Of a stretch of 46,007 nucleotides of DNA, positions 44,507-46,007 are shown in pieces. This DNA is from Alkalinema sp. RU_4_3 (lineage in GTDB: Bacteria; Cyanobacteriota; Cyanobacteriia; Leptolyngbyales; Leptolyngbyaceae): contig JAAUSA010000013.1 of assembly GCA_012031975.1 (NCBI GenBank), positions 1 to 46,007 of the forward strand, given 5' to 3'. The notes beneath the pieces were generated by a model. It did no database searches. It saw nothing but the letters and a program-made list of their open reading frames with translations, and was not told the DNA's origin. The position numbers were made by a program, and so were the translations under genes. Within the stretch, counting starts at the first letter, position 1. Every line of letters begins with the position of its first letter.

Positions 44507-44509
44507 TAT

Positions 44510-44629
44510 GGCTCTACCGGATCTCCCGTGGTCGATCCTAGATGTAGCTGCCTGAAAAGCCAGTTTTGCGGGTCCGCTTGGGTCACTACACCAGATGCAG
44601 TGACCCTCCACAGGAGATCCGGTAGACCC
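44510..44629. mobile_element. 120-bp MITE with 22-bp inverted ends and 8-bp target duplication
   Basis: The ends GGCTCTACCGGATCTCCCGTGG (44510-44531; shown as 22 bases only in pieces: GGCTCTACCGG, ATCTCCCGTGG) and the complement of 44608-44629 (GGGTCTACCGG, ATCTCCTGTGG) match at 20 of 22 positions. AATAGTAT flanks the element on both sides (44502-44509 and 44630-44637), a perfect 8-bp target site duplication. GG(C/G)TCT ends and 8-bp duplications are features of the ISL3 family, so this is likely a non-autonomous ISL3-type element. It has an inner hairpin GGTCACT/AGTGACC (44581-44587 with 44599-44605) and no ORF of its own. Confidence 0.85.
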
Positions 44630-44635
44630 AATAGT

Positions 44636-45186
44636 ATGGAAGACTATGGGGCTGTTTTAGATCAGGCGGTGGGTGGGGGCGATCGGCCCTCCACGGCGGA
44701 GGTGACCTTGGCACTTTTGCAGATGGAGCGGGCGCAGCGGGGGCGATCGTTTAGGGCGGAGGCGCTCTTTGGGGAATGGCGGTTGTTTTTTCGAGTCGGG
44801 GGAAGGTGAAGCTGGGGGATAAGGGTTTGCGGGGCTTTTACCTGCCGAGTTGGCTGCCGGCTCAGATTGGGTTTGGGCCAAACGATCGAGATGAAGCGCC
44901 CCTAGAGGTGACCAATCGGGTGATGGTGGGTTTGATTAATCTCAAACTCACGGGTCCGGCCAGGTTTAGTGAAAAGAAGAATTTACTGGCGTTTGATTTT
45001 ACGCGGCTGGAGGTGAAGGTTTTGGGGCAGGTTGTTTACAAAGGGAAGTTTCCCAGCCCTCGGAAGGATAAGATTTTCATGGATATTCCGGTGGGGAAGC
45101 TGCCGTTTTTTGCTTTTTTTGAGGTGGGCGATCGGTTTATTGCGGCGCGGGGTCGGGGAGGCGGGTTGGCTATTTGGGTGAAATGA
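44636..45186 (+). pseudogene. PAP/fibrillin-like protein, frameshifted in a T6 run
   Basis: From ATG 44636 (MEDYGAVLDQAV) the frame goes through LLQMERAQRGRSF and FGEWRLFF, then breaks at the T run 44786-44791. One more T leads into SSRGKVKLGDKGLRGFYLP, the segment LEVTNRVMVGLINLKLTG, KKNLLAFDFTRLEVKVLG, and the C-terminal FFAFFEVGDRFIAARGRGGG, which resembles cyanobacterial members of the plastid lipid-associated (fibrillin) group. Repaired length is about 183 residues. Fibrillins associate with plastoglobules/thylakoids; here the function is unknown. Its ATG overlaps the right target duplication of the MITE, so before the insertion it lay 1 bp after the glgA stop. Confidence 0.7.
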
Positions 45187-45243: not shown

Positions 45244-45660
45244 CTAAGAAGCTTGGCTGAAAGCACTGGAGAGAAACTGGGTGATGCGTTGAACTAAGGG
45301 GTGCTGTTGAAGATCGTGGATCTGTGCTGCGGTTGGATTTTGGGCAAAGGTTTGGGCAATGATAGCGATCGAGGGTACTGCGACACAGACTTGGTAGGGT
45401 GCCCTGGTGGCAGCTGGGAGTAAATATCCCATGAGGGCTTGTTCGCGTTCTTTAGCTTGGGCTAGATTATCGGAATCAGCATCAACGACTAAGAGAACAG
45501 GTCTAGATCGGACTGACATAATTGTTCCTGCTAAGGAAACAGCAGAATATTTCTTCTTTGCAGAAACAACTTCTATCTCCTGTAGTAGTTCTGCTGGTAA
45601 AAGCTGCTTTAAGAAATGAGCAGCTTCCTCAGTTTCAGTCACTAAATAAGCAGCCTTCAT
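45244..45660 (-). CDS. TOPRIM-like protein of unknown function
   Basis: This is a 138-residue protein. The N-terminus AAYLVTETEEAAHFLKQLL and LLVVDADSDN have the spacing of a TOPRIM fold: conserved glutamate in the first strand-loop and a DxD at the second. Between them, SLAGTIMSVRSRPVLLVV is reminiscent of DUF3226/DUF4435-type TOPRIM proteins, which often accompany ATPases or nucleases in defence loci. Its ATG overlaps the stop of the Mrr-like gene upstream by ATGA, so translation is coupled. Catalytic activity is not shown. Confidence 0.55.
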   Translation of the reverse strand: MKAAYLVTETEEAAHFLKQLLPAELLQEIEVVSAKKKYSAVSLAGTIMSVRSRPVLLVVDADSDNLAQAKEREQALMGYLLPAATRAPYQVCVAVPSIAIIAQTFAQNPTAAQIHDLQQHPLVQRITQFLSSAFSQAS

Positions 45661-45875
45661 AATGTCTCTCCAATTTGCAAACTATAGTCTGACAATCCTC
45701 GCTCAATACAGTAGCGATATTTTGCTAGTAACCCAGTTCTAAATTGGCGGTTTTGCAATGCGCATTCTACATCGCTCCCATCCCAAAGAAGTATGGTTTG
45801 ATTTGCACCATATCGGGCCAGAATTTTCGTGGCCTCAGTAAACCCTGTGCTACTGAATACCAAGCCAACGATTCC
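45657..45875 (-). pseudogene. Mrr-like restriction endonuclease, C-terminal fragment cut by an insertion sequence
   Basis: About 72 codons are left: IVGLVFSSTGFTEATKILARY, QTILLWDGSDVECALQN, FRTGLLAKYRYCIERGLSDY. This matches the C-terminal end of Mrr-type restriction endonucleases, which carry the TGF(T)xxA and QTILLW segments. Upstream of about 45875 (to the right on the + strand) the frame soon meets a stop and the sequence changes to an insertion sequence end, so the catalytic N-terminal domain is separated or lost. Overlaps the TOPRIM-like gene by 4 bp. Confidence 0.6.
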
Positions 45876-46007
45876 TAAGGGGGTCTCAGCTTAAGGCGGG
45901 AAATACCCTCAGTGTAGGGACTTAAGCCAGTTGTGTTCGAGAAGACTTCCTAGACTTTCTAGGCAGGGGAAGTTCACCGACTTGAGTGAGAATCGATTCA
46001 AACAAAT
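45876..46007 (-). mobile_element. End of an insertion sequence with transposase C-terminus
   Basis: From about 45876 to the right edge the sequence is unlike the nuclease gene. On the minus strand a frame from 46005 to a TAA at 45922 reads LFESILTQVGELPLPRKSRK and ends SSRTQLA, similar to the basic, Pro/Arg-rich tails of IS4-type transposases. The remaining 46 bp to the junction contain the small repeat CCCT...AGGG and end CTGAGACCCCCTTAG. CCTAGA-CTT-TCTAGG (45949-45963) is a hairpin. The family is a guess. The other end and the duplication lie outside the window. Confidence 0.45.

What the first reader, a model, noticed from the sequence alone, without database searches (positions are those of the whole stretch)
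45244..45875. Coupled Mrr-like nuclease and TOPRIM-like gene pair, cut by an insertion sequence
The TOPRIM-like gene has a glutamate and a DxD motif and shares an ATGA overlap with the end of an Mrr-like restriction nuclease gene. Pairs of a DNA-binding or cutting enzyme and a small TOPRIM protein recur in anti-phage loci. This two-gene combination is not one I can name. The nuclease gene is broken by an insertion sequence, as is common for defence genes. This is the best candidate for an undescribed module in the window.
Basis: partly seen in the sequence, partly recalled or inferred. Interest (0 to 1): 0.5.

Follow-up and report, generated by a model that had tools for sequence, protein, structure and literature searches.

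The report
Nuclease and TOPRIM-fold partner gene pair
A DNA-cutting enzyme gene and a small partner gene travel together through many bacterial phyla, and the cutter is often lost while the partner stays, which hints that the partner keeps the cutter safe; in this genome the cutter is already broken.

Summary
Window 45244-45660 (-) encodes a 138-residue protein whose predicted fold matches OLD-nuclease TOPRIM domains. It overlaps by ATGA the last ~70 codons of an Mrr-like PD-(D/E)xK nuclease gene, cut off at 45880/45881 by a repeat present at 7 other contig ends of the genome. The pair is a real, recurrent, apparently unnamed module. All 79 loci found with the nuclease also hold the TOPRIM-like gene (72 both whole), in at least 8 phyla, with no fixed third gene. 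Two facts suggest how it works. (1) The nuclease active site is nearly invariant (D 66/66, E 65/66, K 64/66), while the TOPRIM acidic triad is complete in only 53 of 85. (2) Decay is one-sided: of 35 loci found from the TOPRIM side, 15 have a damaged or missing nuclease beside an open TOPRIM-like gene; none has a whole nuclease without its partner. Best reading: the nuclease is the active arm, and the TOPRIM-fold protein is its obligate partner, restraining and perhaps aiming it. Its nearest relatives sit beside ATPases (PARIS, HEC-01, MADS); here it sits beside a nuclease. No function, anti-phage or other, is shown.

The parts
45244..45660 (-). TOPRIM-like partner gene, 138 aa, with E9 and D60-A-D62; a short form lacking the ~45-residue helical insert of most relatives
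   Evidence: ORF; alignment A4 of 85 rows; AF2 pLDDT 89.4, pTM 0.85; VIA-align top five rows are OLD TOPRIM domains
45657..45879 (-). 3' remnant of an Mrr-like PD-(D/E)xK nuclease gene (homologue residues ~107-180); catalytic residues missing from the window
45657..45660 (-). ATGA: stop of the nuclease frame overlapping the start of the TOPRIM-like frame
   Evidence: sequence; the same -4 spacing in 48 of 81 distinct pairs
45880..46007 (.). End of a multicopy repeat (probable insertion sequence) that interrupts the nuclease gene; runs to the contig end, transposase not visible
   Evidence: 7 further copies at contig ends with different flanks; not found in 41 other family genomes

Best explanation
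SHOWN: a conserved two-gene cassette, nuclease gene first, TOPRIM-like gene second, the two usually overlapping by ATGA. It is present in at least eight phyla and has no fixed third gene. INFERRED: the ~182-residue Mrr-like PD-(D/E)xK protein is the active DNA-cutting arm. The OLD-type TOPRIM-fold protein is its obligate partner and acts mainly by binding (restraining the nuclease, and perhaps releasing or aiming it on foreign or damaged DNA) rather than always by its own catalysis. An unpartnered nuclease would harm the cell, so cells lose the nuclease first and keep the partner. In the window that loss has happened: a mobile element cut the nuclease gene and left the TOPRIM-like gene open.
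For: Pairing: 79 of 79 nuclease loci hold the TOPRIM-like gene, 72 with both whole. Eight weaker nuclease-like loci (six long Mrr-type frames, two fragments) have none, so the link is specific to this nuclease subfamily. Spacing -4 in 48 of 81 distinct pairs, overlap in 57 of 81; nuclease and partner trees correlate, r 0.85, 0 of 2000 permutations as high. Nuclease D72 66/66, E85 65/66, K87 64/66, against a complete TOPRIM triad in 53/85. Nuclease model pLDDT 94.2, with restriction nucleases among the best matches. One-sided decay: of 35 TOPRIM-first loci, 17 whole pairs, 15 with damaged or absent nuclease and open partner, 1 both damaged, 2 cut by contig ends, 0 whole nuclease with damaged or absent partner; sign test 15:0 p 6e-5. 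dN/dS of the partner is mostly well below 1.
Against: No toxicity, binding or cutting is shown. The sign test assumes independent losses; 3 of the 15 lie in one genome (Leptolyngbya sp. NIES-3755), and some damage may be sequencing frameshift. Without those three it is 12:0. Several partner genes beside broken nucleases are 90-96% identical to partners in whole pairs, so retention may only be recency. dN/dS does not separate orphan from paired partners, and one comparison (L031/L091) is near 1 on very few changes. 53 of 85 partners keep a full triad, and so does the window copy, so catalysis by the partner is not excluded. Toxin-first gene order is not typical of toxin-antitoxin pairs (recalled).
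Confidence: 0.5

Rival explanations
1. A two-subunit restriction-like enzyme: both proteins are needed to cut, the TOPRIM protein supplying a second nicking site or DNA-end binding, as large and small subunits do in R.BspD6I.
For: The nuclease model matches the small subunit of heterodimeric R.BspD6I (2p14 Z 12.7, rmsd 3.0, 152 aligned). The nuclease is a single ~182-aa protein with no other recognised domain (only Mrr_cat, in 54 of 66). 53 of 85 partners keep the full acidic triad. The gene pair is tightly coupled.
Against: Loss of either gene should then be equally tolerated, yet losses are 15:0 one-sided. 32 of 85 partners lack the full triad.
Confidence: 0.3
2. A DNA repair, recombination or RNA-processing pair with a cellular, non-conflict role.
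For: Neighbours are mostly ordinary genes; the nuclease model also resembles the repair nuclease EndoMS and Holliday junction enzymes at lower Z or weaker E.
Against: Patchy presence (21 of 386 phylum genomes), several copies per genome and copies on plasmids, phyla intermixed in the tree (16 label changes, least possible 7), frequent loss of the nuclease.
Confidence: 0.1
3. The TOPRIM protein is the effector, as AriB is in PARIS, and the Mrr-like protein senses or activates it.
For: Weak similarity of the partner to HEC-01B, mad4, AriB and AbiLii; fold closest to OLD TOPRIM.
Against: The partner's acidic residues vary while the nuclease's do not, and the partner is the gene that survives alone.
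Confidence: 0.08

Closest known systems
PARIS (AriA ATPase + AriB TOPRIM) and split OLD-type systems
   Same: Two-gene unit with a small OLD-type TOPRIM protein; AriB, HEC-01B, mad4 and AbiLii models hit members weakly.
   Different: The partner is a PD-(D/E)xK nuclease, not an OLD-type ATPase; no ATPase is a fixed neighbour. For PARIS the authors excluded a toxin-antitoxin design because deleting either gene was not toxic (passage in PMC9122126).
Mrr / type IV restriction nucleases
   Same: Mrr_cat domain (54 of 66 members) with the D...ExK site.
   Different: Small single-domain protein with a TOPRIM-fold partner; no other Pfam domain found.
HEC-01 (PADLOC candidate) and MADS mad3-mad4
   Same: 28 of 85 partners match the most frequent HEC-01B model at E <= 0.01 (best 6e-7) and 6 match mad4 (best 3.5e-7).
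   Different: The A component or mad3 (ATPase, recalled) is not a fixed part of this pair.
R.BspD6I heterodimeric endonuclease
   Same: The nuclease model resembles its small subunit (2p14).
   Different: The partner here is TOPRIM-fold, not a large nickase subunit.
XisH-XisI pairs of cyanobacteria
   Same: XisH is a small fold relative (2okf Z 7.5, 2inb Z 7.2); two-gene cyanobacterial modules (recalled).
   Different: Z at background level; partner different (recalled).

Membership tests
TOPRIM superfamily, OLD class | TOPRIM alpha/beta fold | tested here: met
   AF2 model pLDDT 89.4; VIA-align 6nk8 Z 12.1 (rmsd 3.5, 127 aligned), 6njw 11.1, 6njv 11.0, 6p74 10.9, 6njx 10.9, next row 8.4. Foldseek alone: no hit at E <= 0.001 and no TOPRIM entry in its 50 rows.
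TOPRIM superfamily, OLD class | Conserved E and DxD metal-binding residues | tested here: inconclusive
   Present in the window protein (E9, D60, D62); complete (D or E allowed at 62) in 53 of 85 family members.
OLD / Gabija / PARIS-type systems | OLD-type ABC ATPase as partner or fused domain | tested here: not met
   No recurrent ATPase neighbour among 79 loci; the direct partner is a nuclease.
Mrr-like PD-(D/E)xK nucleases | Mrr_cat domain with D, ExK site | tested here: met
   Whole homologues: Mrr_cat in 54 of 66; D72 66/66, E85 65/66, K87 64/66. The window fragment lacks this part.
Type IV (Mrr) restriction enzymes | N-terminal DNA-recognition domain beside the catalytic domain | tested here: not met
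   Only Mrr_cat found in 66 members at E <= 0.01; proteins are mostly 177-196 aa. That Mrr has such a domain is recalled.
Type IV (Mrr) restriction enzymes | Cuts modified DNA | not testable with these tools
   Needs protein.
Toxin-antitoxin pair | Toxin gene not found without antitoxin gene | tested here: met
   0 whole nucleases without the partner in the 386 and 42 genomes and the 79 loci searched.
Toxin-antitoxin pair | Nuclease toxic alone, partner neutralises | not testable with these tools
   Needs expression assays.
HEC-01 | B component homology | tested here: inconclusive
   28 of 85 at E <= 0.01 for the most frequent model, best 6e-7; the window protein has no hit.
HEC-01 | A component next to it | tested here: not met
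   Partner is an Mrr-like nuclease; no fixed third gene.

The most novel reading that the evidence does not exclude
An OLD-type TOPRIM fold, elsewhere a nuclease, has been turned into the immunity or sensor subunit of a PD-(D/E)xK nuclease, giving a new class of guarded-nuclease (toxin-antitoxin-like) module that spreads by itself across bacterial phyla.
Probability: 0.35. Interest if true: 0.75.

Novelty: new variant of a known kind. Interest (0 to 1): 0.58.

Why it matters
TOPRIM partners of this class are known beside ATPases that sense phage. A widespread, ATPase-free pairing with a nuclease would suggest that the TOPRIM fold can serve as a regulator rather than an effector. It also gives a minimal two-protein system in which that can be tested directly. 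One-sided decay across phyla turns 'which gene is the danger' into a simple laboratory question.

Tried and rejected
Fixed third gene (ATPase, methylase, regulator): clustering of neighbours in 79 loci gave no family beyond the pair that recurs outside groups sharing synteny or common superfamilies such as ABC transporters. A Walker A scan found ATPases of different kinds and orientations, none fixed. Early AAA_21 and mad3 tallies among 132 neighbours (7 and 5 members) therefore reflect scattered genes.

Defence-island context: PADLOC hits at E <= 1e-10 among 132 neighbours touched a few members each (at most 5 per family; 246 families, 25 shown). No matched control was run, so enrichment is neither shown nor excluded.

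Phage carriage: no relative of the nuclease in viral contigs or phage records; plasmids 3 records.

Other half of the window nuclease: C34:3474-3740 of the same genome holds residues 1-89 of a related nuclease, broken by a different, single-copy element with an IS5-like transposase (family name recalled). It may be the missing half after rearrangement or a separate dead copy; unresolved.

Naming the repeat at 45880-46007: no plasmid match, no copy in 41 other family genomes.

Solved relatives by sequence: partner profile only one hit at E 0.5, nuclease profile none. Curated families: NCBIfam gave nothing near its cut-offs. Foldseek by itself put the partner nearest to Rossmann-like folds such as lumazine synthases at E >= 0.018; only the VIA-align second look raised OLD.

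Print: searches found no description of the pair. Only passages were seen of PMC3710099, PMC9122126, PMC12839542, PMC10952713, PMC5512222 and PMC10586767. The library lacks most subscription papers and all preprints. [quoted passage not shown]

Full report
What is there. At its right end, on the minus strand, an ORF of 138 codons (45244-45660) starts inside the stop of an upstream frame through ATGA at 45657-45660. The upstream frame is homologous to residues ~107-180 of whole nucleases elsewhere (53% identity) and stops at 45880/45881. There a ~127-base sequence begins that recurs at 7 other contig ends of the same genome, 98-100% identical, each time with different flanks. So a mobile repeat interrupts the gene. 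Its transposase is not in the contig and its family could not be named. The shared length of about 127 bases probably reflects assembly overlap (inference).

The partner protein. The window protein alone has no Pfam or PADLOC hit of note. Relatives were collected from 8 of 42 family genomes (14 places), 21 of 386 phylum genomes and from genome contigs. An alignment of 85 rows (A4; fragments and near-duplicates left out by me) shows the TOPRIM signature: E9, D60-x-D62, and an invariant P96 with E99 in most rows. Some members hit DUF3226 (13 of 85), OLD-like_TOPRIM (4) and DUF4276 (4) at E <= 0.01, and HEC-01B (28 for the most frequent model), mad4 (6), AbiLii (3) and AriB (1) at E <= 0.01. The AF2 model has pLDDT 89.4 and pTM 0.85. 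Foldseek gave no hit at E <= 0.001 and listed other alpha/beta folds. VIA-align on Foldseek's top 1000 put five OLD TOPRIM entries first (Z 12.1 to 10.9, rmsd 2.9-3.8, 124-127 aligned), the next row being lumazine synthase at 8.4. I take the OLD-type TOPRIM fold as established for practical purposes.

The nuclease. Whole homologues are mostly 177-196 aa, with Mrr_cat in 54 of 66. D72, E85 and K87 are conserved in 66, 65 and 64 of 66. The AF2 model of the L013 homologue (pLDDT 94.2) matches restriction nucleases: MspJI by Foldseek E 1.6e-5, and AF1548, BspD6I subunits, FokI, HindIII and CRISPR ancillary nucleases at Z of about 10 to 13. The window copy has lost the part with these residues.

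Recurrence. The scan of genome contigs with the nuclease alignment gave 79 loci in Cyanobacteriota, Chloroflexota, Planctomycetota, Bacteroidota, Myxococcota, Pseudomonadota, Thermodesulfobacteriota, Acidobacteriota and one KSB1 bin. In 72 both genes are whole; in 6 the nuclease is partial and the partner present (in one of these, L159, the partner is frameshifted too, and L157 is the same locus as L020); in 1 both are partial. Eight weaker nuclease-like loci fetched (six long Mrr-type frames, and the fragments L075 and L077) have no partner. Among 81 distinct pairs (duplicates and incomplete genes dropped), 48 have the exact -4 overlap and 57 overlap at all. Trees of the two genes correlate (r 0.85, 0 of 2000 permutations as high); shared ancestry of the hosts contributes to this. 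Phyla are partly intermixed in the nuclease tree, 16 label changes against a minimum of 7, which fits transfer but does not prove it. Three of the four copies of Leptolyngbya sp. NIES-3755 are on plasmid contigs, and a Rhizobium conjugative plasmid carries a nuclease annotated 'restriction endonuclease' followed by an overlapping 'hypothetical protein'. No third gene is fixed.

One-sided decay. From the partner side there are 35 distinct loci (14 and 21 further ones; the four G423 rows counted once). By my reading: 17 whole pairs; 15 loci with an open partner and a damaged or absent nuclease (L010 the window, L011, L012, L015, L018, L020, L023, L031, L035, L036, L037, L038, L043, L045, L050); 1 with both damaged (G423); 2 undecidable at contig ends (L019, L046). 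No whole nuclease with a damaged or absent partner was found there, nor in nuclease-side searches of the same 386 and 42 genomes. Lesions differ: repeat insertion, frameshifts, an in-frame stop, an internal deletion, 5' truncations, a fusion, clean absence. The sign test 15:0 gives p 6e-5 if independent; three of the 15 share a genome, leaving 12:0. L031 still keeps the catalytic part and lacks only the first ~35 residues. In genome contigs, where the search pattern favours an intact nuclease start, four further cases appear (L121, L122, L143, L147) and no reverse case.

How it most likely works. If both proteins were equal subunits, loss of either should be equally tolerated. The pattern instead says that the nuclease is not tolerated without its partner. 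Together with an almost invariant nuclease site and a TOPRIM triad complete in only 53 of 85, I infer that the nuclease is the active arm and that the TOPRIM-fold protein binds and restrains it, possibly releasing it on foreign or damaged DNA. Whether the outcome is restriction, abortive infection or plain addiction is open. Partner genes beside broken nucleases remain open frames with dN/dS similar to paired ones, but many of these losses look recent, so an independent function of orphan partners is not shown.

Comparison with the known. The relatives of the partner are TOPRIM subunits of ATPase-based systems. PMC12839542 (passages) describes TOPRIM linked to OLD-ABC ATPases, and OLD-ABC ATPases paired with other nucleases instead of TOPRIM; the present pair is the reverse, a TOPRIM with another nuclease and no ATPase. 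PMC3710099 (passages) mentions an N-terminal domain fused in different proteins to TOPRIM or to Mrr-like domains, not this pair. No paper in nine searches described the pair; the library is incomplete. I rate it a new variant of a known kind.

Noticed in passing
G000:C45:2370-3451 (L021, L024): The same genome holds a second, whole nuclease + TOPRIM-like pair.
   Followed up: partly
G000:C34:3474-4441 (L025): N-terminal 89 residues of a third nuclease copy (or the window gene's other half), interrupted by a single-copy element with an IS5-like transposase (family name recalled).
   Followed up: partly
44509-44630: 23-nt inverted repeat (91% complementary) around a 76-nt spacer just after the glycogen synthase-like gene (named by eye). 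Its ends recur in a list of 30 matches in the genome, many near contig ends, so it is probably a MITE related to an insertion sequence.
   Followed up: partly
44636-45186: Two overlapping + strand frames (44528-44809 and 44776-45186) look like one gene split by a frameshift, possibly a fibrillin-like (PAP) gene by eye; no Pfam hit for the second frame.
   Followed up: no
L158:7848-9552 (Aureicoccus marinus): Two tandem nuclease genes precede one TOPRIM-like gene.
   Followed up: no
L160:8007-8298 and L035:1390-2046: In L035 the start of the nuclease is fused to a whole TOPRIM-like gene; in L160 only the start of the nuclease and the end of the TOPRIM-like gene remain, close together.
   Followed up: no
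window 45244-45660, L011, L020, L136, L141, L150, L151: Short partner forms lack a ~45-residue helical insert found in most relatives; meaning unknown.
   Followed up: no
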